Shown here: piece by piece, positions 38,401 to 53,270 of the stretch
Position numbering within the stretch: position 1 is the first letter of the stretch
Layout: each line of letters opens with the position of its first letter
Source: Methyloversatilis thermotolerans
GTDB lineage: Bacteria > Pseudomonadota > Gammaproteobacteria > Burkholderiales > Rhodocyclaceae
Length of the DNA stretch: 64,000 nt
Assembly: GCF_000372885.1 (NCBI RefSeq)
Contig: NZ_KB889967.1
Location: 62,001 to 126,000 of the forward strand
Direction: 5' to 3'
Program-made: the position numbers and the translations under genes
Notes under the pieces: model-generated
Database searches by the model: none
Seen by the model: the letters and a program-made list of their open reading frames with translations, nothing else
Told to the model about the DNA's origin: nothing

Positions 38401-41400
38401 GTTTCAATCCACGCCCGACTCGCATGAGCCGGGCGACCTACACCAGCACAGCGACCGACGCCGGCCTGCACGTTTCAATCCACGCCCGACTCGCATGAGC
38501 CGGGCGACGTAGATCGAAGGACGCACCGATCGGCGCTTCGAGGTTTCAATCCACGCCCGACTCGCATGAGCCGGGCGACTCGAAGATCGACAACACGCGG
38601 CAGATGCCGACGCGTTTCAATCCACGCCCGACTCGCATGAGCCGGGCGACCCTGCCGCAAGCGACGCGGGCGATGCAGAGGCAGGCGAGTTTCAATCCAC
38701 GCCCGACTCGCATGAGCCGGGCGACGTAGGTCGCGCCCGTTTTGGTATTGGTCTGAAGAGGTTTCAATCCACGCCCGACTCGCATGAGCCGGGCGACGCC
38801 AAGCGCCTGGTCGCCCTGCAGGACGTCGACATGTTTCAATCCACGCCCGACTCGCATGAGCCGGGCGACTCGACGTCGACAAGTCCGCCCGCGTTGGCTA
38901 CACGAGTTTCAATCCACGCCCGACTCGCATGAGCCGGGCGACGGGCGGCCGTTGTAGGCCTCGGCCTGCTCTTCGATGTTTCAATCCACGCCCGACTCGC
39001 ATGAGCCGGGCGACTCGCACACACGGAGTCTCCCGACATGGATCTGCTGTTTCAATCCACGCCCGACTCGCATGAGCCGGGCGACCCTATATGGCCGGGC
39101 GGTACAAGGCCATGGTCGAGTTTCAATCCACGCCCGACTCGCATGAGCCGGGCGACTCGCGCCCGTTTTCGTGCTGCAGCAGACGCAGCGCGTTTCAATC
39201 CACGCCCGACTCGCATGAGCCGGGCGACACGGCCTGGCCGATATCTTCGAGAGCATCGGCGAGTTTCAATCCACGCCCGACTCGCATGAGCCGGGCGACC
39301 TGCTCGCGCGTGATTGAGCATGTCGGCGTGGGCGTTTCAATCCACGCCCGACTCGCATGAGCCGGGCGACCTGCGCGACCGCCAGTCTCGATTGCGACAT
39401 GTTCGGGTTTCAATCCACGCCCGACTCGCATGAGCCGGGCGACGCCGCATACAGGCGAGCGCGCCCGTCGCCCAGCATGTTTCAATCCACGCCCGACTCG
39501 CATGAGCCGGGCGACTCGCCGTTGCGGTCGTGCGTGATCGACATTCCGCCGGTTTCAATCCACGCCCGACTCGCATGAGCCGGGCGACTTGCCGCCGCTC
39601 GAGGTGTTCCACGGATAGCGCAGTTTCAATCCACGCCCGACTCGCATGAGCCGGGCGACGACATCCACAAAAAAGACCGACGCTGAACGGCTTGTTTCAA
39701 TCCACGCCCGACTCGCATGAGCCGGGCGACTCGAGTTCAACGGCGTGCACTATGACAGTGACCAAGTTTCAATCCACGCCCGACTCGCATGAGCCGGGCG
39801 ACGACCGTTGCCGCGTGCGTCGAGAGCCGCCTTTGAGTTTCAATCCACGCCCGACTCGCATGAGCCGGGCGACCATCGACCTTTCTCATCACGACCGTAG
39901 GTTCGAGGTTTCAATCCACGCCCGACTCGCATGAGCCGGGCGACGCCGCGCGGCTGCAGCGCCTGTGCCGCGAGGCCGTGTTTCAATCCACGCCCGACTC
40001 GCATGAGCCGGGCGACGGGCCGGCCAGGTGCACCCGCGCATCATCACGCTGGTTTCAATCCACGCCCGACTCGCATGAGCCGGGCGACACCGGCAAAAAG
40101 CCGGTCGCGACCATGAACCGCAAGTTTCAATCCACGCCCGACTCGCATGAGCCGGGCGACTCGCCTCTTCGTCAGTCATCCGGACGATGTCGATGTTTCA
40201 ATCCACGCCCGACTCGCATGAGCCGGGCGACATCCAGCGATTGGCCAATGGCCGGTACATCGTGCTGTTTCAATCCACGCCCGACTCGCATGAGCCGGGC
40301 GACCGGCGCAGTTGGTCGGCTGCTCGCCTACATGGCTTGTTTCAATCCACGCCCGACTCGCATGAGCCGGGCGACTGGTGACGGCACCAATTGCCTCAGG
40401 GGTAGGGTTCGTTTCAATCCACGCCCGACTCGCATGAGCCGGGCGACACCGTTGGCGCCCAGGTCCGCCTGCGCATTTTGCAGTTTCAATCCACGCCCGA
40501 CTCGCATGAGCCGGGCGACCTGGCCAATCATGTGCTCCGAGGACATCAACCTCGTTTCAATCCACGCCCGACTCGCATGAGCCGGGCGACCGAGGCGCGT
40601 CAGGGCAAAGCACTCAAGAACGCCGTTTCAATCCACGCCCGACTCGCATGAGCCGGGCGACGCGGATACAACGCCGACCAGGCCGGATCGTCCCAGCGGT
40701 TTCAATCCACGCCCGACTCGCATGAGCCGGGCGACCCTCGTACAGACGTCTGGACACTTCAATGGCGGCGTTTCAATCCACGCCCGACTCGCATGAGCCG
40801 GGCGACTGGATGCAGCTGGCGCGCAGTGATGCGGCGGTTTGTTTCAATCCACGCCCGACTCGCATGAGCCGGGCGACCCGGCACCAGCCAGTGGTCCGAC
40901 TACACCAACAGGTTTCAATCCACGCCCGACTCGCATGAGCCGGGCGACTTCTCGTTGGCAAACACGACCACCTGGCCCAGGGTGTTTCAATCCACGCCCG
41001 ACTCGCATGAGCCGGGCGACACAGGTCCGGCGCGCGCCGCCGCTGAATCTGCTGTGTTTCAATCCACGCCCGACTCGCATGAGCCGGGCGACGAGCAACG
41101 CATGGGCGCTGGTGAGTACGTTGGTTGTTTCAATCCACGCCCGACTCGCATGAGCCGGGCGACGACACTGCGACGCCATTCCAATTCGGGTAGAGGCCGT
41201 TTCAATCCACGCCCGACTCGCATGAGCCGGGCGACCTGGTACCAGCCGCATGCCTCATCCCAGTTGGCATGTTTCAATCCACGCCCGACTCGCATGAGCC
41301 GGGCGACTGATGCCATGGCCGCCACACTCATCGCGTACAGAGTTTCAATCCACGCCCGACTCGCATGAGCCGGGCGACGCGCCGCGCTTCGGCGCTGATG

Positions 41401-44251
41401 TCGTCGATTGCGCGGTTTCAATCCACGCCCGACTCGCATGAGCCGGGCGACCGTCGTCGATGTGCGTCACCGGCAGTTCGCCGATGTTTCAATCCACGCC
41501 CGACTCGCATGAGCCGGGCGACGTGCCGTCGGCAGCCTGCTCCGCGATGTCGATTGGTTTCAATCCACGCCCGACTCGCATGAGCCGGGCGACTGCAAGG
41601 CCTTGCATGTAGCACGTCATTCAGTGCGTTTCAATCCACGCCCGACTCGCATGAGCCGGGCGACGTATGAAGCTGCGGAAATTTGCGGATGCCATGCTGT
41701 TTCAATCCACGCCCGACTCGCATGAGCCGGGCGACAGCGGGCAGGTCATGGATTCCAACGCAAAGCTCCAGTTTCAATCCACGCCCGACTCGCATGAGCC
41801 GGGCGACACGATCCCGCTGCCGCATCCGACGTTCCCGTTTGGTTTCAATCCACGCCCGACTCGCATGAGCCGGGCGACACACCAGTGCCACCGGTATCCG
41901 TGCGTTTCAGCAGTTTCAATCCACGCCCGACTCGCATGAGCCGGGCGACCGAGGTTGTCGCCGGGAATCAGGCCTGTACCTGTGTTTCAATCCACGCCCG
42001 ACTCGCATGAGCCGGGCGACGATGTCGTGTAGCTGAGTCGCCTGCAGCACTTGCCGTTTCAATCCACGCCCGACTCGCATGAGCCGGGCGACGCTGCTGC
42101 GCGCCGGCTTCGAAGCTGCCTGCAAGGTTTCAATCCACGCCCGACTCGCATGAGCCGGGCGACCTGATCATCCTCGCCGCCCGGCCCGGGATGGGGAGTT
42201 TCAATCCACGCCCGACTCGCATGAGCCGGGCGACGAGCGGATATTCGTTTTCAGCTACTTCCCGAGCAAGTTTCAATCCACGCCCGACTCGCATGAGCCG
42301 GGCGACTGGTGCACGCACGGCTGCGCGTACTGCTTCGCGAACCTGTTTCAATCCACGCCCGACTCGCATGAGCCGGGCGACGGAGCAGGATTGACAATGG
42401 GATTCGACCACCTTCTGTTTCAATCCACGCCCGACTCGCATGAGCCGGGCGACGCGGCGGTCCAAAAATGCAGTGGGTCATTGACGAGTTTCAATCCACG
42501 CCCGACTCGCATGAGCCGGGCGACAGGCGCGGGCCGCGTCGATCAGGTGCGAACAGCTCGTTTCAATCCACGCCCGACTCGCATGAGCCGGGCGACCAGC
42601 GCATCGGCGCCAACCCGCTCATGGTCATGCAGTTTCAATCCACGCCCGACTCGCATGAGCCGGGCGACCTCGACCACGTTCAGCAAGGTGCTGTCCTTGA
42701 TGTCGTTTCAATCCACGCCCGACTCGCATGAGCCGGGCGACCCAACGCCCACGTCACCGTCAATGACGCACTCGAGTTTCAATCCACGCCCGACTCGCAT
42801 GAGCCGGGCGACTCTCGATCAGTTTCATCCCCGAAGTATTCGTGAATGTTTCAATCCACGCCCGACTCGCATGAGCCGGGCGACGCGGACTGGCGCCGGC
42901 ACTTCCTCGCCTACGTCGAGTTTCAATCCACGCCCGACTCGCATGAGCCGGGCGACGACATGGGCGTGCCCGTCATCGCCTTGTCTCAGCTGTTTCAATC
43001 CACGCCCGACTCGCATGAGCCGGGCGACGCCGCTGATTCGGAAGAGGCAATGCAGCCGCAGTGTTTCAATCCACGCCCGACTCGCATGAGCCGGGCGACC
43101 GGTGTGCAGGGTGTGCAGGGTCGCGTGTACACGAGTTTCAATCCACGCCCGACTCGCATGAGCCGGGCGACGTCAGCGCGCCCGCGATGCCTTGGTGATA
43201 CGTGATGTTTCAATCCACGCCCGACTCGCATGAGCCGGGCGACCATGGTCCCGATGAGCTGTTCCCGATGTAGAGCTGGTTTCAATCCACGCCCGACTCG
43301 CATGAGCCGGGCGACCTGCAGGTCGCCCATCTGCTCGCCCAGCTCGCGCACGTTTCAATCCACGCCCGACTCGCATGAGCCGGGCGACGCCTGGTCCGTC
43401 GCGCCGAGTCACTGCACCCGATTGTTTCAATCCACGCCCGACTCGCATGAGCCGGGCGACACACAAGACACGCGGCACTTGCCGCGACGTGTTCGCGTTT
43501 CAATCCACGCCCGACTCGCATGAGCCGGGCGACGTGGATGTGGGTTCAGTCATCGCGTCTCCAGAAATGTTTCAATCCACGCCCGACTCGCATGAGCCGG
43601 GCGACGCGCCCTCGACGTATTCGCTGCCGGTGTCGGCAGGTTTCAATCCACGCCCGACTCGCATGAGCCGGGCGACATGGCTCCGGCGAAATCCACGTTC
43701 CCTATGCGCCGTTTCAATCCACGCCCGACTCGCATGAGCCGGGCGACCAAGGTCAGTCTCGATCTGCCGCTTGGAACGACGGTTTCAATCCACGCCCGAC
43801 TCGCATGAGCCGGGCGACCCGGTCGCGTTGAAGTCCGCAAAGTCCTTGTACCGGTTTCAATCCACGCCCGACTCGCATGAGCCGGGCGACCCCAGACGAG
43901 ATCGCATGGACCGCCGGGCTCAACGTTTCAATCCACGCCCGACTCGCATGAGCCGGGCGACATCGATGACGGCATCTGCGACGGGCCACCAGGCATGTTT
44001 CAATCCACGCCCGACTCGCATGAGCCGGGCGACCAGCCAGCGGCGGACCAGTTTCCGACCTCGTCCGGGTGTTTCAATCCACGCCCGACTCGCATGAGCC
44101 GGGCGACCCATGGTCCCGATGAGCTGTTCCCGATGTAGAGCTGGTTTCAATCCACGCCCGACTCGCATGAGCCGGGCGACAAACCAATCAAAGAGCGAGA
44201 TTGCCGCTCTGCGAGTTTCAATCCACGCCCGACTCGCATGAGCCGGGCGAC
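38401..44251 (-). CRISPR. Type I-C CRISPR array, 82 repeats
   Basis: I counted 82 copies of a 37-bp repeat, all apparently identical (plus-strand start GTTTCAATCCACGCCCGACT, end GAGCCGGGCGAC), with 81 spacers of 34-38 bp. Read on the minus strand, the repeat ends GTGGATTGAAAC, the usual I-C 3' end that becomes the crRNA handle, preceded by a ten-pair stem around loop ATGC. Transcription therefore runs right to left, with the leader next to cas2 at 44252-44435 and the oldest end at 38401. The spacer at 43244-43278 recurs at 44108-44143 with one extra base; no other duplicate was noticed. No spacer was seen to match the rest of the window, but I could not search exhaustively. Confidence 0.98.
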
Positions 44252-44435: not shown

Positions 44436-44726
44436 TCATAGTACCAATGGACCGTCGAAGTCGGTTGCCTTGAAGCGACCGTGCTCCCGGACCTCACAGC
44501 CTTTGGTATCCGGGAGGCGGTACAGGCGTAGGCAGTCCTGCTCTGGGTTAATCTGGTCCAAGAGGGCTCTTTCGAGCTCCTCAAGCTGCATCAGATTGAC
44601 CTGGCACTCAAAGACGGATTTCTGCACCCGCTGTCCGGTGCTTTCGCATATTTTCGCGACGCGGCGCAGCCGGCGGCGCCCTTCCTTCGTTTCGGTATTG
44701 ACGTCGTAACAGACAATGACGAGCAC
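44436..44726 (-). CDS. cas2: CRISPR-associated endoribonuclease-fold protein Cas2
   Basis: Structural partner of Cas1 in spacer integration. It is 96 residues with the ferredoxin-like opening [43 protein letters not shown], including the conserved first-strand Asp (YDV) and the S-V-F-E-C segment. It lies five bases after cas1 and is the last cas gene before the leader. The family is typical for type I-C; in the Cas1-Cas2 complex nuclease activity is not needed. Confidence 0.97.
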
Positions 44727-44731
44727 GATGG

Positions 44732-45760
44732 TTATCTCATGATGAACGGTACATAGGTTTCTATGTCGCCGCGTATCGTGCGGGCGAGTAGCCGCGCTTG
44801 CACAAGAGGAATGAGGCCGAGTGGAACAGGTTGCGCGAGAAGTGGATGAGTCAGTTCCTCCTGTTTCCGTTCCTGGAAGGCAACGACGACGGTCTTGCGC
44901 CCGTTCGGCTCAAGAGACACCGCGCCGCCTTCGCGTATCGAAAAGTCACCGGCAGAGATTTGCCCTCTGTTTATCAGGGTGAGTGCCAGCCGGTCGGCGA
45001 GCGGACGGAACTCTTCCATCAGATCAAGTGCGAGTGCCGCGCGGCCGGGCCGTACGGTATGCAGGAAGCCGATCTGCGGGTCGAGTCCGACCGACTCAAG
45101 CGCCGATCTGCAATCGTTCATCCACATTGAATACAGGAAAGACATCAGCGCATTCATCCGGTCGAGCGGTGGGCGTCGAGTGCGGCCATCCATGGCGAAG
45201 TGCATACGCTGATCCGGTTTCACGAGGCGATTGATCTGGCCGAAGTATTTGTGCGCGGCGTCGCCTTCGATACCGCGCAGCGCATCGAGCGACGCTTGTG
45301 CCGGGAGTGCGCGCAGGCTGGCCGCGAGATCGTCGGCACCACGGGACAGTGCGCGCTCATCCTCTTCCTCCTTGGCTTCGCGGGCGCCGCGCAACAGCAC
45401 TTGGCGAGCGTTCTTTATCTTGCCCGCGATGCAACTGCGTGCGATCTCGAGTGAGAAGACCGCATCGGCGGCCCGTCGGTGCTGGTCCAGGCGTAGAAGC
45501 ACGTTGCCGCTGGTAGCGCCTTCCAGCCGGGCCTTGAAGCGACCGTTCCCATCAAGCATGACCAGAGCGACGCCGCTTTCGGCGAGGGTGTGCATCAAAG
45601 GAAGCGAGATACCCACGTGACCGAAACAGACGATGCTCGACAGATGGTGTAGTGGCACCTGCATGCGCAACTCGCGTTCGATTTCTATGCGCACCGTCTT
45701 GTTCTCAAGTCGCAGATAGCTCTCCGGTTGTGTGACGTAGAGAGTGTTCAGCAGATGCAT
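44732..45760 (-). CDS. cas1: CRISPR-associated integrase Cas1 (type I-C)
   Basis: Metal-dependent integrase that inserts new spacers at the leader end. The 342-residue protein begins [26 protein letters not shown], as in the I-C subfamily. The metal-binding residues are in [13 protein letters not shown] (Glu), [24 protein letters not shown] (His and the following acidic residue). The arrangement cas4-cas1-cas2 is the complete I-C adaptation module, and spacing to cas4 is only three bases. The duplicated but slipped spacer in the array suggests this machinery has been active. Confidence 0.97.
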
Positions 45761-45763
45761 GGA

Positions 45764-46402
45764 TCAGGCTTCCGGGTCGAACAGCTTTTTGCGCTCGGTC
45801 GCCATGTCTTGCTTCAGTGAGGCGACAGCGTGCGGCTGGCACAGATCGATCAGCGAGCATTCTCGGCAGCGGACGTCGTCTGCCGGTGGGGGCAGGCGGG
45901 CGCTCGAGAGCATCGATCGGACCGCAGAGACGGCGAACTCGACCTGGCTACGAAGCTCTTCGGAAATGGCCACTTGCCGCCGACGACGCGACGACGCGTA
46001 GTAGATCGCGCCCTCGGTGACCGCGTGGCCCGTCATCTCTTCGAGGCAGATTGCTTGTGCCGCGAGTTGCAGATCGTCACAGGCCGCAATGTGGGCGGCC
46101 TTGTTGCGGGATCCATGTTTGTACTCAACCGGGTAGGGCGTGCCGTCGTCCGCAAATTCCACGACATCCGCCTTGCCGGTCAGCGCAAGACGATGGCTCC
46201 AGACTGGCAATGCACGTTCGATGCGTAAACCGGGGCGAACTTCCAGACCGGGCGTGTCTGCGCGTGCATGAACCGCCTGGCCGCGCAACGTATGCACGTT
46301 TTCCGCAAAGGCCTGTTCCTGATGAATCAGCGCGCACTGGCGGGGGCAGTAGCACCAGTGTTGCAAGGCGGAGATCGGGAGCGGATCGGGTTCGTCATCC
46401 AT
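45764..46402 (-). CDS. cas4: CRISPR-associated Cas4 (PAM-selecting exonuclease)
   Basis: RecB-like Fe-S nuclease of 212 residues that trims prespacers and selects those with a PAM. The first cysteine of the cluster is in LQHWCYCPRQCALI and the remaining ones are in DVRCRECSLIDLCQP. Nuclease motifs are GKADVVEF (Asp) and YPVEYKHGSRNK (Glu, Lys). The start at ATG 46402 begins MDDEPDPLPISALQHWCYCPRQ as in other I-C Cas4 proteins; no clear ribosome binding site precedes it. It is separated from cas7c by an inverted toxin-antitoxin pair, so it needs its own promoter in the 62 bp before 46465. Confidence 0.96.
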   Translation of the reverse strand: MDDEPDPLPISALQHWCYCPRQCALIHQEQAFAENVHTLRGQAVHARADTPGLEVRPGLRIERALPVWSHRLALTGKADVVEFADDGTPYPVEYKHGSRNKAAHIAACDDLQLAAQAICLEEMTGHAVTEGAIYYASSRRRRQVAISEELRSQVEFAVSAVRSMLSSARLPPPADDVRCRECSLIDLCQPHAVASLKQDMATERKKLFDPEA

Positions 46403-46425
46403 GAGGGTTGATCGCCAAAAATGGA

Positions 46426-46443
46426 CTGATATCACTGATATCG
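46426..46443. promoter_or_regulatory. Tandem operator between cas4 and the antitoxin gene
   Basis: CTGATATCA followed directly by CTGATATCG: two copies of a nine-mer, each with a GATATC palindrome, in the 62-bp divergent region. RHH antitoxins typically bind such repeats. On the plus strand TTGATC (46408-46413) and TATCAC (46430-46435) could be a -35/-10 pair overlapping it. Binding here would also cover the only space for a cas4-cas1-cas2 promoter. Confidence 0.6.
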
Positions 46444-46464
46444 ACCTTGCAAAGGAGCGTCGTC

Positions 46465-46677
46465 ATGGGTGACATGCTGCTGAGGAATCTGGATGAATCC
46501 CTGAAGCAACTGTTGCGCGAGCGTGCGGCACGGCATGGGCGCTCGATGTCGGACGAACTGCGTGAAATCGTCAGTAATGCCTTGAGTCAGCCGGAGCCGG
46601 TACGCAATGCAGAGTTTCGCGATCTGGCCGCGCGGCTGCGAACAATGAGTGCCGGCTGGGCCACAGACACCCTCTGA
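46465..46677 (+). CDS. FitA/VapB-like ribbon-helix-helix antitoxin inside the cas operon
   Basis: Small antitoxin of 70 residues. The N-terminal RHH fold is MGDMLLRNLDESLKQLLRERAARHGRSMSDELREIVSNAL, as in FitA and Arc-type antitoxins; the C-terminal tail (EFRDLAARLRTMSAGWATDTL) should wrap the toxin. The ATG at 46465 has AAAGGAG seven bases upstream, better than the start of the longer open frame at 46408. It is transcribed opposite to the cas genes and lies exactly between cas7c and cas4. It should bind the tandem CTGATATC repeats just upstream and so may influence cas4-cas1-cas2 as well. Confidence 0.87.
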   Translation: MGDMLLRNLDESLKQLLRERAARHGRSMSDELREIVSNALSQPEPVRNAEFRDLAARLRTMSAGWATDTL

Positions 46678-46707
46678 AGATTTACTGCGCGAAAGTCGTG
46701 ACGAGCG

Positions 46708-47136
46708 ATGACCGCGCTCGTGATCGACGCCAGTGTCGCGGTGAAATGGCTCGTCGACGAACCCGGAACCGACGCAGCGATTGCGCTGCTTGACGAAGAG
46801 CTCCATGCGCCCGACCTGATCTACGCGGAGGTGGCAAACATTCTCTGGAAAAAGCAGATGCGGGGTGAAGTCGATCCGGACATCGCCGCGTACAGTGCTG
46901 AAGCGCTGACCCATGTGCAGATGAGCGCAGAACCGTGTGAGGTGCTGGCGGCTGATGCGGCCACGCTTGCCGTCAGGCTGGGGCACCCCGCCTACGATTG
47001 CTTCTACCTGGCTCTCGCGCGGCGGATCGGCGGGACGCTCGTTACGGCAGACAAACGATTGGTTGCCCGCTGCCAGCAGGGCGATGTGCCGGATCTCGGC
47101 AGCGTTGTACGTATGCTGGCAGCTTCCGGGCATTAG
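46708..47136 (+). CDS. PIN-domain toxin (VapC/FitB-like) inside the cas operon
   Basis: Toxin of 142 residues with the PIN-domain RNase fold. Acidic active-site residues are visible: D in [17 protein letters not shown] in [14 protein letters not shown] in [24 protein letters not shown] (two aspartates). Such toxins cleave tRNA or rRNA and are held by the cognate RHH antitoxin, 30 bp upstream. The stop codon overlaps the cas7c stop from the opposite strand, so the module fits the gap with no spare sequence. This is not the usual content of I-C operons and suggests either insertion or an addiction role for the locus. Confidence 0.9.
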
Positions 47137-48083
47137 CCCACCCGGCGGATCAATGTGATGCCCGACGGCAGCGTGGCGTCGTCGATGCTCACTTCGTAGT
47201 CCGAGAAAGCGCGTGCCACATCGATATCCGGCTTGCGCCGCACGCGCACCCGGTCGAACAGATCGTGAGCGTGCGCGTTGCCCAATTCCGACGCGTGCTT
47301 GAAGACGTAAAGACCGCGCGTAGACATCTCGCCCCGGGCGGCCGAACGGTCGTGTTCGAACATGTGCTCCAGCGCTTGCCAGAGCAGTTCGAGATCGTCC
47401 TCGCCAAAGCCAGTCTGTTTTGCGAGGAAGGACGATACGAAGCCGTGCGCCATGTAGATTCCGTAGGGCACGGTGTGCTTGCGGCCCATGGTGCGGTTGT
47501 CACCTTGTTGCTTCTCCGCCTCGGCTTCCGTGGCGACGGCCATGCGGGTGATCGAATGCTCCAGCGCAACGATGGGGTCGATGGAGCGGGCGAAAGTGAG
47601 TTGCACAGGGCCACGAACCTGTCCGCAGTTGATGCCGGTCGACATCACGGCACCGAAAGTCCGCACATCGAAAAAGTTCTGGCACATCCACTTGCGCGCC
47701 AGATCGACCTCGCTGGCGCTGCCCTTGCGTTTCTCTTTCTTGCCCTTCTTGGCTTCCGTCTCGCCAGCTTCTGCCGCTGCCTCGTCGGTGGGCGCGTCGA
47801 GCTTCAATGCCGAGTAGGCTCGCTGGTGTTGTAGGTTGAGGATGGCCTTCTCGCGAACATAGATTTCGTGGCGCTTCTGCCCTGCTTGTGGTGCCGATTC
47901 GCTCTGGTCCTGCGTGAGCGCCACGAAGTTGCGTACCTTGCGCTTGAGCGCGACATCGGTCATCAGCCCGTGTCCGCTCTCCGCATCCAGGCGGGGCAGG
48001 TTGCCGGCATCGGGGTCGCCGTTGGGGTTTCCGTCCTTTACGTCGAACAGCAGGGCAAAGTCATAACGGTTGTTCAGGCTCAT
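47133..48083 (-). CDS. cas7: Type I-C Cascade backbone protein Cas7c (Csd2)
   Basis: RAMP-family crRNA-binding protein that polymerises along the guide. It is 316 residues, starting [33 protein letters not shown] at ATG 48083, the typical Csd2 opening. Further I-C signatures are [30 protein letters not shown] and [21 protein letters not shown] Glu/Lys-rich insert ([18 protein letters not shown]) is a surface loop. The start follows the cas8c stop by one base, so the cas5-cas8-cas7 genes are a coupled operon. Its stop overlaps the PIN toxin stop in the opposite direction. Confidence 0.96.
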
Positions 48084-48084
48084 G

Positions 48085-48489
48085 TCAGATGTCTCCTTCG
48101 GGTTCGGTAACGTCGGGCTGGTTTTTTTCGCCATGTGATTGCGAGTGCGGGGCAAAGAAGTCCTGCCGCTGGTGGTAGTAGCCGATCGCGAACCGGCCTT
48201 GGTCCTGAAGCGGCATGTGGCGTGGAAAGTCGTCAATGCCTGACATGATTTCCGCGAGCAATATTTCGAAATTCACCGCCCGCCGCTTGTTGCTCAGCTT
48301 CGCGAGGTGATGGTTCTTGAGGCGCATCAGGGACGTGAACACCGCGACAGGGGTGCTTGATGCCGCACCGTAGTAGCGCTCGCGTATCGTCGCGTTCAGC
48401 CCTGGGCTGGCCTCTTCCTGGATTTTTTCCAGCGTTGCGAACAGTCGTCCCAGCCGATAAGCAACGGATGGATTTTCGGGGTCGAGCAT
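48085..48489 (-). CDS. cas11c: Internal Cas11c small subunit, translated within cas8c
   Basis: In-frame internal gene of 134 residues, [30 protein letters not shown] onward. Type I-C systems are known to make the Cas11 small subunit from an internal start in the 3' part of cas8c, and the start motif MLD-P[13 protein letters not shown] corresponds to the reported position. The ATG at 48489 has AGGGAG about ten bases upstream. It would supply the Cas11 helical bundle along the R-loop belly. Confidence 0.72.
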
Positions 48490-49902
48490 TTCTGTGATCT
48501 CCCTGGTTGGATGGTCCGGGCCATGGTCACGGTCCCGAACGGAACGGTTGAGACATGCCTTGATGGCGGCTGCCCGCAAGTAGCTGACGCGTTGTTCGGC
48601 GCGGCAGCGTTGAACTGCTGCGTTCAGCCACATTGCGGGGTAGGGCGAACCGGTGAAGATGCTGCGCACGATGTCGCCGCCCAGACGCGGCGGTATGTTG
48701 TCGGCCTTGCTCTGAATGGTGATCGCGGTGAGAAGCCGGAAAAGACTTGGGTATTCCATGTCATTCGGGCTGCGTACGATGCGCAGATCGTCGAACCAGG
48801 CGGTCACCCGTTCGGCGATTTCACCCAGCGGGGCCGCGTGCCAGAAGCGCACTGAAATGCGCGCGGCGTTCGGCGCAAGTCCCAGAACGAAGAAGCGGTT
48901 CTGGCCTCGCTCACCGCTGAAGCCGCCGGTTCGTACCGCCTCAAACAGAGCCTTGACCTTTTCCGACTGGGCGTCAGGATCGTCGCCGCCAATGATCTCG
49001 GCCAGCCACTCCTCCATTGGCTCGTCATCCCGCTGTGCCCAGAAAACCGTGGAGGCGTCGCCCACCTGGAGGCGCTGCGTCGAGTCGCGCGCGAGAAGTG
49101 TGTTTAAAGCTGTGGTGTAGGCGAAGGCAGCCGCTTTGCCGACGGGGGCGTTGTTGCCCTGTGTTTTGGCATAGGAGTTGAAGGCGTCGAGGTTGAACGA
49201 GACGATGTTCGCGCCTGAAGTCTGCGCGCCCCATACACCCTTGATCGCGGTGTGCAGCCTTTCCGTGGGTGCGGTGTTTCCTGTAACCAGACACATGCCG
49301 GACAAAGCACCGCTTTCGTCGTCCTCGGCTACGCCGATATGCGGCAAGACAGCGACTCGCTGGCAGATGAGCTCGGTGTCCCCGACCAGACGGAAGCTCA
49401 ACACAGGGTTGCCGGCGGCAATTTCTTCGAACGCTTCAAAGCTTCGGATTTGACCCTGGGCGTTGCCGGCAAGGAAGGTCAATACCGCTTGAACGCCTTC
49501 GTCGCGTTGAGCCTCCGGGGGTAATTCAAGAATTCGCGCCCGGAAAGCGGCTTGCATTTCCAGCAGGCGCGAAAGGTACTCGTCGGACTTGCCCTTGTCT
49601 ATTGCGTCCTCATGCTTCTTGGCATCCGGTAGTGCGAGCACATACTCAGCGTTGTCCCAAAGCAAGTTGGCCGCGATGCCAGATGTCTTTTTGACGCCCT
49701 TGGAGACTAAATAGGCAGTGCCTATCTTTTTCTTTCCCGCGACATGACGGGTGTCGACAACGGCACGAAGCGCACCTGATGCATCGAGCTCAAGTACGTA
49801 GGCAATTTCCTTCAGTTCAAGGCCGAATGCGGGAAGCCGCCGTGTTGGATCGGGGGCCGTCTGGCGACGATGGTAGTAGTCATTCAGTGCCTGAAGAATC
49901 AT
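48085..49902 (-). CDS. cas8c: Type I-C Cascade large subunit Cas8c (Csd1)
   Basis: Large subunit of the I-C effector, which recognises the PAM and stabilises the R-loop. It is 605 residues, the usual length, beginning [40 protein letters not shown], and contains family-typical [33 protein letters not shown] and [19 protein letters not shown]. The start overlaps the cas5c stop by four bases, and the stop is one base from cas7c. The 3' 400 bp also encode Cas11c from an internal start (see separate entry). Confidence 0.97.
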
Positions 49903-50585
49903 CCCCGCACCTCCACACGACTCAGATCAAGTACGCCACGCTCGACCTTGGCGCGAAAGAAGCGGGGCGTGGGGTTGCTCGGGTTGCTGAAGTCCATGTC
50001 GTGCAGCATCCACCCCAGGTCGGCGCTCCACTCCTGCAATGCGGAAGGTTCGTCCATACCTGGCTGGAAATCGCCGTCATCGGTTTCCGTGAGTGGTACG
50101 GGCCTGAAGCGTGCGGCGAATTCGCGACACCCCAGATAGGGCTGGTTGATGCACTGACCGGCCCCGGCGCGTCGGCTGAACATGGCCAGGTACTTGCCCG
50201 GGTTGCTGCGCGCATCGTCGCCAATCATTTCCATGTCGGCATAGAGACGGTAAGCGACATCGCGCAGGAAAAGCCCCGCCCGCTGCTGCCGCTCATCCTC
50301 GATATACAGCGCCAGCTCGCCGTGCCCCGCGTTCATTGCCGCTTGCGCGTTGCGGGTTGAGGCGACCGCACCCACCTCGTTGCGTCGCACGCTGATCCAC
50401 TTTACCGGCGCCAGGACTTCGATTCGACGAATCTGCCAGCGGATGGAGGGTTTCCAGAGGATTGCTTCGAACACCGCACGTGCGGCGGAGGGCGTGATGA
50501 GATCGTAGGACACTCGCTCGACCTTCATCTCCGGTCGGGTGAAGCAGGCGTAGTCGCCGCGTACTTCGAGACAAAATCGCTTCAT
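49899..50585 (-). CDS. cas5c: Cas5c (Cas5d), pre-crRNA endoribonuclease of type I-C
   Basis: In type I-C, which lacks Cas6, this protein both cuts the pre-crRNA at the base of the repeat hairpin and caps the handle. It is 228 residues beginning MKRFCLEVRGDYACFTRPEMKVERVSYDLITPSAARAVFEAILWKP, the Cas5d signature, with IRWQIRRIEVLAPVKWISVRRNEV following. The 11-nt handle it leaves (TGGATTGAAAC) is exactly conserved in the stand-alone element at 50794-50830. Its ATG is inside the ATGA that ends the small membrane ORF upstream, and it overlaps cas8c downstream. GGAG nine bases before the ATG also serves it. Confidence 0.96.
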   Translation of the reverse strand: MKRFCLEVRGDYACFTRPEMKVERVSYDLITPSAARAVFEAILWKPSIRWQIRRIEVLAPVKWISVRRNEVGAVASTRNAQAAMNAGHGELALYIEDERQQRAGLFLRDVAYRLYADMEMIGDDARSNPGKYLAMFSRRAGAGQCINQPYLGCREFAARFRPVPLTETDDGDFQPGMDEPSALQEWSADLGWMLHDMDFSNPSNPTPRFFRAKVERGVLDLSRVEVRG

Positions 50586-50722
50586 GTAAATTTCTCCAAT
50601 TTTTCAATTAGATATCCTACGACCAAGCAAAGAAGTAGCAGGTAAAGTGCATAAAAGCGTCCGGGCTGAAGCTGAATGGCGAGCATTCGAATTTCTCGCA
50701 GTACGCCTTTCCAATCGACCAT
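50582..50722 (-). CDS. Small single-helix membrane ORF coupled to cas5c (possible CreT-like toxin)
   Basis: Frame of 46 residues: MVDWKGVLREIRMLAIQLQP, a hydrophobic helix FYALYLLLLCLVVGYLI, then the charged end EKLEKFT. GGAG (50729-50732) sits six bases before the ATG, and the stop overlaps the cas5c start as ATGA; both support real translation. A -10-like TATGAT (complement of 50754-50759) lies about 32 bp upstream. I recognise no family. The frame is open further upstream through the crRNA-like element, but that part is unlikely to be coding. By size, helix and location it resembles membrane-acting peptide toxins; as an alternative it may only couple cas5c translation to an upstream event. 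Confidence 0.55.
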   Translation of the reverse strand: MVDWKGVLREIRMLAIQLQPGRFYALYLLLLCLVVGYLIEKLEKFT

Positions 50723-50769
50723 GACTCGCTCCAGCGAAACACTCTCACCAGAGATCATACATATCCATC

Positions 50770-50785
50770 TTCCAGTATGGTGCAC
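50770..50785 (+). promoter_or_regulatory. Predicted target site of the crRNA-like guide (PAM TTC plus seed)
   Basis: TTC at 50770-50772, the known I-C PAM, followed by CAGTATGGTGCAC. The guide reads CAGTAAGGGGCTC. Positions 1-5, 7, 8, 10, 11 and 13 match; mismatches at 6 and 12 fall at the flipped-out sixth positions, leaving only position 9. The site lies between the putative promoters of the guide RNA (plus) and the small ORF/cas5c (minus). Confidence 0.5.
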
Positions 50786-50793
50786 AATGTGTT

Positions 50794-50890
50794 TTAATTC
50801 GGCCTTCGCTGATTCAGCGTGGATTGAAACCAGTAAGGGGCTCTCACAGGAAGCGAGGTGGTGGGATGGGGGTGACCCCATCCCTCTCTT
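50794..50890 (+). ncRNA. Stand-alone crRNA-like RNA (CreR/CreA-like): degenerate I-C repeat, guide, terminator
   Basis: A repeat-like unit fills 50794-50830, in the orientation opposite to the array. Its last 14 bases, GCGTGGATTGAAAC, equal those of the array repeat, and about 22 of 37 bases match overall. A different but equally placed hairpin, CGCTG-ATT-CAGCG, ends exactly where the 11-nt handle TGGATTGAAAC begins, as Cas5d needs. A 32-nt guide (50831-50862, CAGTAAGGGGCTCTCACAGG...) follows and then the hairpin at 50863-50884. TTTAAT at 50793-50798 could be a -10 giving a start near 50805. No second repeat is seen. The unit lies between cas3 and cas5c. Known analogues are CreA and CreR guides, which direct Cascade to promoters with seed-only matches. 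Confidence 0.55.
50863..50884 (+). terminator. Hairpin ending the crRNA-like RNA
   Basis: Nine perfect pairs (GGGATGGGG with CCCCATCCC) closed by the GNRA-type loop GTGA, followed on the plus strand by TCTCTTGG. The pyrimidine tail exists only in the plus direction, so it fits as a terminator for the guide RNA rather than for cas3. In the cas transcript it would still form a strong structure between cas3 and cas5c. Confidence 0.6.
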
Positions 50891-50903: not shown

Positions 50904-53270
50904 TCAGTAAACCCAACTTGCTGGATCACCCGGAGCCGAATCTACTCTTGCGCCCATGACCCGGTCGTAGAACCCGTCCCAGCCATCGATCTGAACATAG
51001 AGCCCCGGACAAGCTGTGACCTCCCGGATGTCGCCGGCCTCGATCAGCGCCGGTAGCTGATGCCGGTAGAGGGTCACGCAATAGCGCTGCAGCTTGCGCA
51101 TGAGCCAGCGGGCGGGACCGTCGCGTTCGAGCATTCCGATCAGTGCATCGATGTCCTCGCGCGCATTCGGGCTGCGATAGCGAACCACCACCGTTGCTGC
51201 ATCTTCGTTGTCGATCAGTCGGAAATTGTCGGCCGCATCGCGGAACTGGACTGGAAGGGCAAGTGACTTGGCGTCAATCTGCAGCCGGAGCATCTTGCCG
51301 ATGCCATGAAGGTCCAGTGACTGCGCGTCATGGTAAAGACGCTGGAAGTAGTTGCGGATCAGCGGAAGTGCGAACGGTTGCTCGGGCAGCTCATGCCACA
51401 CGGCCTTGCAGGTGTCGCGTGCCTGACGCAACAGACCCGGGGGCGCCTTGGTGGGCGGTACGAACACATGCACTTCTCCAGGTTCGTGCAGACGCCCTTC
51501 GCGGTTGCAGCGACCCGCGGCTTGGGCTATCGAATCCAGTCCGGCCATCGCGCGGTAGACGGTTGGAAAGTCGAGATCGACACCCGCTTCGACGAGCTGG
51601 GTCGAGACCACGCGCACCGGCGCAGCTTTTGTGCCGGCCTCGATCGCAGCGCGACGGCAAGACAGCGCCTGCTTGATGGCCTCAATGGTGTCGCTGCGGT
51701 GCTGTGCGCACATGAGTGCTGACAAATGCCAGCACCCTTCGTCGGATCGCGCCTTGACCAAACCGTACAGTTCGCGCGCATCGGCGCGCCGGCTGACGAT
51801 GGACAGCACGGCCTGGTGCTGCATGATCTCGTCGGCCAATTCAGGCCAGTTGCGTGGCGTTTCGAGGCTGGCGGGCAGTTTGACGCGAACGCGCTCGAGC
51901 GCTTCATACAGCGCCGGAACGTCGTCGATGATCTCCGTGACCTTGCCGATACCGCGCGAAATGCCGCGCGTCGGGTCCGCACTTCCGCTCGCGTCCAGCA
52001 CCGGCTGGGTGGCGGTGCACAGCACTACGGTGACGCCGAAGTCCTGTATCAGATAACGCAGCACGTCAATGACTGGCTGCAGGAACTCGACGGGCAGCAA
52101 CTGGGCCTCGTCGAGCACGATGACGCTATCGATCAGGTTGTGCAGCTTGCGGCAGCGAGAGGTTTTGCGCGCAAACAGGCTTTCGAATAGCTGGACGTTG
52201 GTCGTGACGATCAGCGGGGCGTCCCAGTTCTCGCAAGCGAGGCGGGAGCGCGCGGTTTCGCTCTCCGGATCGGATTCGATGTTGCTGTGATGTTCGATCA
52301 CCACGTCGTCGCCAAGCGGAGCGAAGACCTCGCGGAACACATTCGCCGTCTGTTCAATGATGCTCGTGTAGGGAATGGCGTAGATCACTCGTCTCTTGCC
52401 ATGATGGACCGCGTGTTCGAGCGCGAAGGCGAGGCTTGAGAGGGTCTTTCCGCCGCCTGTGGGAACAGTGAGACTGTAGGTTCCAGGGGCTTGTAGCGCT
52501 TTGCTGATGCATTGACGCAGTACATCGGCACGTACGCGGTTCACCGATGTTGCTTTGACTTGCGAGGCAAGTCGCACGAGATGTCCAGCGAGTGTTTCCC
52601 GCATCGTCGCAAGGGAGGGCGCGCCTTCGCGTCGATAGGCCTTCTCGACGTTCATGTATCGCTCGGTATCGAGAAAGTCTGCGTCGACCAGCGCCGAGAA
52701 CAGCATGCGTACCCACAGTGCAAAACGCCCTGGAGCCTCATGCTCGGTTCCCACCGGCAGACACTTGAGGCTTAGATGCGTGCTGTCCGGATGGGCAATG
52801 TCGGTCGGACTGGGGCGCGATGCGGCTTCGTCGAACTCGGTGCGCGCATGGGCGCTCGCAAGTCTGGCGGCGAGGCCGGCGCCCTCCCAGTTGTCGAGGC
52901 CAGCGTGGTGACCGGCGATGACGTATTGCAGGACGCGACTGAGCAGCAGCCCTTGCCGTCCGAGCTGTCGCTCAAGTTCCTTTTCCGCCCAGAGGGCGCC
53001 TGCTGCGGAATGGGTTTTCTGTTGATCCGAAACTCTCTCGATGTGGGCGTCGATGCCGTTTGCGAGCCTGATGTAGCGCTGAAATCCAGCCCTACGTTTG
53101 CCGAGGTCGTGCCACAGTCCAGCCAGACGGGCAATCGGCTGCGCTGGCCCCGGCATGAAGATCGCTGCCAGGCGGCCAACCTCGCGCAAATGGTCGTCCA
53201 GCCAATGAGGAGGTTTGCCGGCTTCACCGGAGGGTGGGGCGTGTGCCCAGTCTTCAGTATCTGATCGCAT
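50904..53270 (-). CDS. cas3: CRISPR-associated helicase/nuclease Cas3 (type I-C)
   Basis: Nuclease-helicase recruited by Cascade to degrade target DNA. The 788-residue protein has an N-terminal HD nuclease domain (HWLDDHLREVGRL; LAGLWHDLGKRRAGF, and VIAGHHAGLDNW), then an SF2 helicase with Walker A TVPTGGGKTLSSLAFALEHAV (about 272), DEAQ-box VIVLDEAQLLPVEFL (about 387), CTATQPVLD, and the C-terminal motifs RVVSTQLVEAGVDLDFPTVYRAMAGLDSIAQAAGRCNREG. All catalytic motifs appear intact. It precedes cas5c in transcription but is separated by about 320 bp that hold the crRNA-like RNA and the small membrane ORF, an unusually long gap for this operon. Confidence 0.97.
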   Translation of the reverse strand: MRSDTEDWAHAPPSGEAGKPPHWLDDHLREVGRLAAIFMPGPAQPIARLAGLWHDLGKRRAGFQRYIRLANGIDAHIERVSDQQKTHSAAGALWAEKELERQLGRQGLLLSRVLQYVIAGHHAGLDNWEGAGLAARLASAHARTEFDEAASRPSPTDIAHPDSTHLSLKCLPVGTEHEAPGRFALWVRMLFSALVDADFLDTERYMNVEKAYRREGAPSLATMRETLAGHLVRLASQVKATSVNRVRADVLRQCISKALQAPGTYSLTVPTGGGKTLSSLAFALEHAVHHGKRRVIYAIPYTSIIEQTANVFREVFAPLGDDVVIEHHSNIESDPESETARSRLACENWDAPLIVTTNVQLFESLFARKTSRCRKLHNLIDSVIVLDEAQLLPVEFLQPVIDVLRYLIQDFGVTVVLCTATQPVLDASGSADPTRGISRGIGKVTEIIDDVPALYEALERVRVKLPASLETPRNWPELADEIMQHQAVLSIVSRRADARELYGLVKARSDEGCWHLSALMCAQHRSDTIEAIKQALSCRRAAIEAGTKAAPVRVVSTQLVEAGVDLDFPTVYRAMAGLDSIAQAAGRCNREGRLHEPGEVHVFVPPTKAPPGLLRQARDTCKAVWHELPEQPFALPLIRNYFQRLYHDAQSLDLHGIGKMLRLQIDAKSLALPVQFRDAADNFRLIDNEDAATVVVRYRSPNAREDIDALIGMLERDGPARWLMRKLQRYCVTLYRHQLPALIEAGDIREVTACPGLYVQIDGWDGFYDRVMGARVDSAPGDPASWVY

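What the first reader, a model, noticed from the sequence alone, without database searches (positions are those of the whole stretch)
50770..50890. Candidate CreR/CreTA-like self-targeting guide inside a type I-C cas operon
Between cas3 and cas5c, a degenerate I-C repeat ends in exactly the array's last 14 bases (GCGTGGATTGAAAC), has its own hairpin at the Cas5d cutting position, and is followed by a 32-nt guide and a GNRA-loop hairpin with a pyrimidine tail. It faces opposite to the array, so it is not a stray array copy. The guide's first 13 bases (CAGTAAGGGGCTC) match a site beginning only 58 bp upstream (CAGTATGGTGCAC) at ten positions. Mismatches at 6 and 12 are the bases Cascade flips out. 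The site is preceded by TTC, the I-C PAM. Ten fixed bases (PAM plus seed positions 1-5, 7, 8) in about 300 bp on two strands would arise by chance with odds near 600 in 4^10. The site overlaps the putative promoters of both the guide and the small ORF/cas5c, so Cascade could repress its own synthesis. CreA and CreR guides work this way in other subtypes; I know of no described I-C case with this layout.
Basis: partly seen in the sequence, partly recalled or inferred. Interest (0 to 1): 0.92.

Follow-up and report, generated by a model that had tools for sequence, protein, structure and literature searches.

The report
CRISPR guide silencing membrane-peptide gene
Inside this bacterium's type I-C CRISPR operon sits a lone crRNA-like guide that very probably steers the CRISPR complex to switch off a neighbouring gene for a tiny, possibly toxic membrane protein together with the CRISPR genes behind it, and the same arrangement recurs in related operons.

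Summary
Between cas3 and cas5c, on the + strand, lie a hairpin, an 11-nt handle identical to the array's, a 32-nt guide and a GNRA hairpin. The seed matches a TTC-flanked site 58 bp upstream (mismatches 6, 9, 12). Of 137 distinct I-C loci examined, 26 carry such a unit. Of 28 candidate guides, 19 have in their own gap a TTC site matching positions 1-5, 7 and 8, against 2 of 756 cross-locus pairings. In the 24 best pairs, positions 6 and 12 match in 10 and 3, positions 1-5 and 7-11 in 20-24. Scored without a PAM, 21 of 24 sites carry TTC.

In two loci this gene is inverted, outside the cas5c transcript, yet still beside guide and target. Best reading: CreA/CreR-type Cascade repression of a putative membrane toxin (CrePA-like in logic) that here also autoregulates cas5c-cas2; plain CreR autoregulation is the main rival. 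Transcription, repression and toxicity are untested. New variant of a known kind; key papers could not be read.

The parts
50807..50819 (+). short hairpin CGCTG-ATT-CAGCG just 5' of the handle, at the place of the array repeat's stem-loop
   Evidence: perfect Watson-Crick stem of 5 bp or more in 16 of 28 candidate units; 8% of random positions
50820..50830 (+). 11-nt crRNA-like 5' handle TGGATTGAAAC, identical to the array handle
   Evidence: identical handle and array end in 11 of 21 loci with a readable array repeat (compared by eye)
50831..50862 (+). guide, 32 nt; seed CAGTAAGGGGCTC
   Evidence: no hit in phage or plasmid records for 50831-50864
50863..50884 (+). GNRA-loop hairpin, inferred terminator of the guide RNA (tail TCTCTT to 50890)
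   Evidence: not called by the strict terminator scan
50770..50785 (+). target: PAM TTC 50770-50772 and partly matching protospacer CAGTATGGTGCAC 50773-50785
50754..50759 (-). inferred -10 element TATGAT of the small-gene promoter, 31 nt before its ATG (31-34 nt in 8 of the 14 loci scored); inferred -35-like TGCACC at 50779-50784 inside the target
   Evidence: weak, not called
50582..50722 (-). small gene, 46 aa, one hydrophobic segment (FYALYLLLLCLVVGYLI); stop overlaps the cas5c start (ATGA)
   Evidence: no match to the window protein in Pfam or NCBIfam (E up to 1) or PADLOC
49899..50585 (-). cas5c (Cas5d; the I-C pre-crRNA nuclease, established knowledge)
   Evidence: PADLOC Cas5c E 1.7e-63
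48085..49902 (-). cas8c
47133..48083 (-). cas7c (start inferred at the internal Met 52 of the long ORF)
   Evidence: best profile match starts at residue 57
45764..46435 (-). cas4
44732..45760 (-). cas1
44436..44726 (-). cas2
38401..44251 (-). CRISPR array, 82 exact repeats (crRNA sense GTCGCCCGGCTCATGCGAGTCGGGCGTGGATTGAAAC)
50904..53270 (-). cas3
   Evidence: Cas3c E 2.5e-206

Best explanation
The unit is a single-repeat crRNA-like gene of the CreA/CreR type. Its transcript is cut by Cas5c at the foot of the hairpin, leaving the 11-nt handle joined to the guide; a terminator hairpin takes the place of the second repeat. It loads into the I-C Cascade, which binds the TTC-flanked, partly matching site in the region that starts transcription of the small membrane-protein gene (and perhaps of the guide itself). 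Because pairing fades after about 14-16 nt, the complex blocks RNA polymerase instead of licensing Cas3. In this orientation the small gene leads cas5c-cas8c-cas7c-cas4-cas1-cas2, so Cascade also limits its own synthesis. The small protein is somewhat more likely than not a membrane toxin set free when Cascade is lost, drained by crRNAs or blocked by an anti-CRISPR: a CrePA-like addiction / anti-anti-CRISPR device. Shown by sequence comparison: guide-target pairing, PAM, the 6/12 pattern, likeness of handle and array, association with the small gene, purifying selection on that gene. Inferred: transcription, processing, repression, operon structure, toxicity, trigger.
For: Own TTC + 7/7 seed site in 19 of 28 candidate units against 2 of 756 cross-locus pairings; 24 of 28 against 23 of 756 at 6/7 or better. 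Matches in the 24 best pairs: positions 1-5 23-24, 6 10, 7-11 20-23, 12 3, 13-14 18-19, 15-18 9-13, 19-36 3-13. Register control: 19 at shift 0, 0 or 1 at shifts of 1-6. PAM not asked: TTC in 21 of 24 sites. Between related loci the target follows guide changes at 8 of 8, 3 of 3, 1 of 1, 6 of 8, 5 of 7, 3 of 6 and 1 of 2 differing positions; one further pair has the same guide at the positions compared. Small gene in 17 of 137 distinct loci, 16 with the unit; unit in 26 of 137; Fisher p 3e-13, loci taken as independent, which related loci are not. dN below dS in 8 of 8 pairs, dS saturated in 4, pairs sharing members. Target overlaps the best-scoring small-gene promoter in 11 of 14 loci, no random baseline. 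In L131 and L134 the small gene is inverted, outside the cas5c transcript, yet still beside guide and target. The slot holds a PIN toxin-antitoxin pair in 9 other loci, none with the unit (one pair checked, Phd and PIN). PMC8501985 (passages): mutating the 6th or 12th CreA nucleotide is tolerated, the other 10 not; a one-repeat creA ending in a terminator exists.
Against: No transcript or repression data. The window's promoters are weak and its pairing has an extra mismatch at 9. In L131 and L134 the best small-gene promoter does not overlap the target, while the best guide-strand promoter, which points at the guide and cas5c, does; so which gene is repressed there is open. L052 has a small gene but no handle word, awkward for a strong toxin. 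L111, L072, L074 and L075 have guide and target but no homologue of the small protein, so the guide also occurs without it. A genus-mate (L083) has the I-C operon without the module. No known toxin family matches.
Confidence: 0.68

Rival explanations
1. Pure CreR: the guide lets Cascade hold down its own operon (and its own guide); the small membrane protein is a harmless or accessory Cas protein that happens to lead the operon.
For: The target lies ahead of small gene and cas5c in the window and in 12 other forward-oriented loci with small gene and TTC target. L111 and L075 have guide and target close to cas5c with no small-protein homologue. In L131 and L134 the target overlaps the best guide-strand promoter, which points at cas5c. 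[quoted passage not shown]
Against: The guide is tied to the small gene in 16 of 17 loci with that gene, in both orientations. Two other small proteins with a hydrophobic segment, not detected by the profile of the first family, sit under the same kind of guide in divergent I-C operons (L117/L119, L142/L144).
Confidence: 0.4
2. Degenerate relic of a stray array repeat with a chance seed match, no function.
For: Only hairpin and handle of the repeat remain. For this locus alone a match as good arises in 7 of 20000 random draws, small but not absurd after a long read.
Against: The same arrangement with different guides and co-varying targets in related loci.
Confidence: 0.03
3. A Racr-like repeat decoy (RNA anti-CRISPR) or phage-derived element rather than a guide.
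For: A type I-C Racr candidate, RacrIC1, is known next to an AcrIC5 homologue in a Bifidobacterium prophage (PMC10651486, passages).
Against: The unit has a guide with a PAM-flanked partner in the same gap, lies in the cas operon and recurs there; the guide has no hit in phage or plasmid records.
Confidence: 0.02

Closest known systems
CrePA (CRISPR-repressed protein toxin with CreA guide; Shu et al. 2025, not held; known from passages of PMC12737573 and PMC13131331)
   Same: crRNA-like guide; effector represses the promoter of a protein-coding gene through partial pairing
   Different: CreP is described as typically carrying a KilA-N domain and acting on FtsZ; here a 38-75 aa protein with one hydrophobic segment and no family hit, in I-C, mostly abutting cas5c; toxicity untested
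CreR (cas-regulating RNA; Liu et al. 2023, not held; known from passages of PMC13131331 and PMC12737573)
   Same: guide next to cas genes, partial match near a promoter that may drive cas genes; effector autorepression
   Different: described there for I-B, I-E and V-A (or, loosely, Type I and V-A) and as generally not coupled to a toxin gene; here I-C, opposite strand, usually with a conserved small membrane-protein gene
CreTA (RNA toxin and CreA; PMC8501985 and PMC9458426 passages, PMC10097628 start of abstract)
   Same: TTC PAM, seed pairing tolerant at 6 and 12, one-repeat creA with terminator in Haloarcula hispanica
   Different: CreT is an RNA toxin; here the partner is a protein under purifying selection
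crRNA-like elements of Shmakov et al. 2023 (recalled; paper not held)
   Same: stand-alone repeats with guides matching promoters of cas or cargo genes, found by genome scan
   Different: as I recall often two-repeat mini-arrays; whether I-C units like this one are listed I could not check
RacrIC1 (PMC10651486, passages)
   Same: lone I-C repeat outside an array
   Different: encoded in a prophage beside an acr gene as an inhibitor of type I-C CRISPR-Cas, not in the cas operon

Membership tests
CreA/CreR-type crRNA-like guide | repeat-like handle matching the co-resident array, outside any array | tested here: met
   14 of 14 last bases identical; over 21 loci 11 identical in 11 nt, 7 with one and 3 with two differences (by eye)
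CreA/CreR-type crRNA-like guide | seed-limited partial pairing to a nearby PAM-flanked site, tolerant at 6 and 12 | tested here: met
CreA/CreR-type crRNA-like guide | RNA is made and bound by the effector | not testable with these tools
   needs small-RNA sequencing and Cascade pull-down
CreR | target lies in a promoter that drives cas genes | tested here: inconclusive
   small gene and cas5c overlap by 4 nt, so one transcript is likely, but no strict promoter is found and the weighted ones are weak
CreR | generally not coupled to a toxin gene | tested here: inconclusive
   small-protein homologue in 16 of 26 loci with the unit; whether it is a toxin is unknown
CrePA | protein-coding partner whose promoter is the target | tested here: inconclusive
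   partner gene confirmed as a protein; target overlaps its best promoter in 11 of 14 loci, without baseline, and not in L131 and L134
CrePA | CreP typically has a KilA-N domain | tested here: not met
   no Pfam match for the window protein at E up to 1; the L027 homologue has two sub-threshold matches, neither KilA-N
CrePA | partner is toxic and freed by anti-CRISPRs | not testable with these tools
   bench test
CreTA | toxin is an RNA | tested here: inconclusive
   the conserved partner is a protein with dN below dS in 8 of 8 pairs; an additional RNA toxin was not searched for
CRISPR-Cas subtype I-C | cas3-cas5c-cas8c-cas7c-cas4-cas1-cas2 with 37-nt repeats | tested here: met

The most novel reading that the evidence does not exclude
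A family of CRISPR-repressed toxin-antitoxin modules proper to type I-C: a very small single-pass membrane toxin without known relatives is silenced by Cascade through a one-repeat, terminator-ended guide encoded divergently from it, and in most loci the same repressed promoter feeds Cascade itself, so that any block of Cascade (loss, anti-CRISPR, crRNA overload) raises both Cascade and the toxin. Other small membrane proteins have been captured into the same circuit in divergent I-C operons.
Probability: 0.45. Interest if true: 0.86.

Novelty: new variant of a known kind. Interest (0 to 1): 0.75.

Why it matters
[quoted passage not shown] This locus and its relatives give I-C candidates with a very small membrane partner and exact guide-target pairs that can be tested by single-base changes. 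If the peptide is toxic, it adds a membrane-acting toxin to the CRISPR-guarded ones and links I-C autoregulation, addiction and resistance to anti-CRISPRs in one intergenic gap. It would also mean that deleting I-C Cascade genes may free a toxin.

Tried and rejected
A stray array copy: the unit faces away from the array, and 26 of 137 distinct loci carry such a unit in this slot. Chance seed match: rejected by cross-locus, register and random-start controls. Phage-derived spacer: no hit in phages or plasmids. Known RNA family: two Rfam matches far below their gathering scores (SNORD48, a plant-virus pseudoknot), judged chance. Known protein family for the small ORF: none for the window protein; the L027 homologue had two sub-threshold Pfam matches (Phage_TAC_6, SLC3A2_N). 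Homologues elsewhere: the L040 protein has none in plasmids or phages and the window protein none in plasmids (the window protein was not run against phages); among 398 phylum genomes only the own one plus three weak hits at E 0.006-0.01, one with a stop inside, judged chance. A further 21 loci from the wider phylum showed no handle word and no small gene in the gap, some cut by contig ends. Own-genome search with a 12-base pattern found the target and one other place, G000:C1:1667218; the backwards control found one.

Rows dropped or placed by hand before counts: L004 (handle-like word without hairpin), L099 and L116 (duplicates of L027 and L065), two extra handle words in L131 and one in L140. 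The 28 still include four doubtful ones: L120, L140, L148 and a chance handle word in L144; the true L144 unit (degenerate handle, checked) was not in that count. In one search the lists were set by hand: L120 and L140 left out, L144 and L148 (pairing and PAM GTT read by eye) kept in. L074 has PAM TTT. L089-L091 and L152 were not used; three pairs of identical loci were merged. The 21 loci come on top of the 137 and were not checked for duplicates. PIN pairs were counted by the motif DTH[VI]W; only the L022 pair and the window's own pair were run against Pfam. Positions 9-11 and 13 onwards served to break ties when sites were chosen; 6 and 12 did not. Handle-array comparisons were made by eye; the arrays of L029 and L074 rest on one repeat copy each.

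Full report
What is there. The window holds a type I-C operon on the - strand, cas3-(gap)-cas5c-cas8c-cas7c-cas4-cas1-cas2, with an array of 82 exact repeats at 38401-44251 behind cas2. In the 318-bp gap between cas3 and cas5c, on the + strand, lie a 13-nt hairpin (50807-50819), the 11-nt handle TGGATTGAAAC (50820-50830), a 32-nt guide (50831-50862) and a GNRA-loop hairpin (50863-50884) with a pyrimidine tail. The last 14 bases of the repeat-like part equal the array's. The seed CAGTAAGGGGCTC has a partner TTC-CAGTATGGTGCAC starting 58 bp upstream, with mismatches at 6, 9 and 12 and no match at 14-18.

Chance for this locus. Random 18-mers of the window find a TTC + 7/7 seed partner in this region in 83 of 20000 draws and one as good as the observed in 7 of 20000. 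That alone is suggestive only, so I turned to relatives.

Relatives. Scanning for handle words gave 28 candidate units, of which L120, L140, L148 and the word in L144 are doubtful. Of the 28, 19 have in the same gap a TTC site that matches guide positions 1-5, 7 and 8 completely and 24 have 6 of 7 or more; the same guides against the other loci's gaps give 2 and 23 of 756. Shifting the guide start by 1 to 6 nt gives 0 or 1 of 28 at 7/7 and 0 to 2 at 6/7 or better. Scored by pairing without asking for a PAM, 21 of 24 sites are preceded by TTC, the others by TTT, GTT and GGC. Position by position, in the 24 best pairs, positions 1-5 match in 23-24, position 6 in 10, 7-11 in 20-23, position 12 in 3, 13-14 in 18-19, 15-18 in 9-13, and 19-36 in 3-13, mostly near the random level of 6. 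Positions 6 and 12 played no part in choosing the sites; 9-11 and 13 onwards broke ties. This is the every-sixth-base pattern of type I Cascade (established knowledge), and pairing that stops after the seed fits binding without Cas3 action. For CreA, PMC8501985 reports that mutation of the 6th or 12th nucleotide is tolerated and of the other ten of the first twelve is not (passage). Among related pairs the target follows the guide at L101/L065 8 of 8 differing positions, L027/L065 3 of 3, L117/L119 1 of 1, L131/L134 6 of 8, L027/L101 5 of 7, L010/L084 3 of 6, L030/L127 1 of 2; L142/L144 have the same guide at the positions compared.

Handle and array. In 21 loci I could read an array repeat of the same genome. 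The 11-nt handle is identical in 11, differs by one base in 7 and by two in 3; the variable first base is shared in 16 of 21 (by eye). Perfect Watson-Crick stems of 5 bp or more abut the handle in 16 of 28 against 8% of random positions.

The small gene. The ORF between target and cas5c on the - strand (50582-50722) encodes a 46-aa protein with one hydrophobic segment and overlaps the cas5c start by 4 nt. A profile of such proteins finds it in 17 distinct loci, 15 in the direction of cas5c and two, L131 and L134, against it; those two were not in the profile and score E 5e-9 and 4e-9. Sixteen of the 17 have the guide unit. All 8 pairs compared have dN below dS, e.g. 0.03 against 0.57 and 0.24 against 1.05; dS is saturated in 4. 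In 12 forward loci the PAM edge lies 39-65 nt before the small gene's start; over 14 loci the target overlaps the best-scoring small-gene promoter in 11, without a random baseline. L029's small ORF is frameshifted by an 11-bp tandem duplication although guide and target still pair. L052 has the small gene but no handle word.

Both sides of the target. Scored towards the guide, the best promoter overlaps the target in 11 of 20 loci, the window among them (CTTCCA-18-TTTAAT, weak). In L131 and L134 the small gene runs away from cas5c into the 3' end of cas3 and the target lies 5-7 nt before its start, but its best promoter does not overlap the target, whereas the best guide-strand promoter, which points at guide and cas5c, does. 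These loci show that the small gene stays beside guide and target even when it is not in the cas5c transcript; they do not show which gene is repressed.

Other partners. In L117/L119 a different small protein with a hydrophobic segment, and in L142/L144 another, precede a same-strand guide whose target lies on the opposite strand at the 5' side of the small gene; neither is found by the profile of the first family, and the L117 and L144 proteins have no Pfam match. In L111, L074, L075 and L072 no homologue of the small protein is found. In nine other loci the slot holds a PIN toxin with its antitoxin and never the guide unit (the L022 pair matches Phd_YefM and PIN).

Mechanism. I take the guide, its loading into Cascade and repression in this gap as very likely (about 0.9), the coupling to cas5c-cas2 in the window as likely (about 0.8, from the 4-nt overlap), and toxicity of the small protein as about even to slightly better (0.5-0.55), from its steady company with the guide in both orientations, the replacement by other small hydrophobic proteins or by toxin-antitoxin pairs in the same slot, and its size. 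None of transcription, processing, repression or toxicity is shown.

Known systems. Review passages give CreR for I-B, I-E and V-A (PMC13131331) or loosely for Type I and V-A (PMC12737573), CreTA with RNA toxins, and CrePA with a KilA-N protein toxin (PMC12737573). In the listings no title or start of abstract describes such a unit in I-C; I did not read those papers through. The stand-alone-repeat survey of Shmakov et al. 2023 (recalled) and the CreR and CrePA papers are not held, so I-C cases may be in print. I file this as a new variant of the CreA/CreR kind, and not as a member of CrePA, because the KilA-N feature was tested and not met and toxicity could not be tested.

Noticed in passing
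window 46408-47136 (+): A type II toxin-antitoxin pair (FitA-like ribbon-helix-helix antitoxin, PIN toxin; Pfam) lies antisense between cas7c and cas4, overlapping the end of the cas7c ORF by 4 nt.
   Followed up: partly
L022, L037, L045, L054, L064, L066, L102, L129, L130, cas3-cas5c gap: PIN toxin-antitoxin pairs occupy the same slot as the guide module and did not co-occur with it; a remnant sits in L135.
   Followed up: partly
L117 and L119, cas3-cas5c gap: The stop codon of a different small gene lies inside the guide's handle (GG-TTGA-AAC), so cutting by Cas5 would clip the end of its own mRNA while making the guide.
   Followed up: partly
L029 3868-3889: Small gene frameshifted by an 11-bp tandem duplication although guide and target remain.
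   Followed up: partly
L110, cas3-cas5c gap: Guide unit with the rare handle TGAATTGAAAC; the array of the same genome ends CGAATTGAAAC; the neighbouring small ORF is lipoprotein-like and not found by the profile of the main family.
   Followed up: partly
L083 and L087 (same genus as the window): One genus-mate has the I-C operon with 86% identical cas5c and no module; another has a more distant cas5c with a same-strand unit whose site lies 313 nt upstream.
   Followed up: partly
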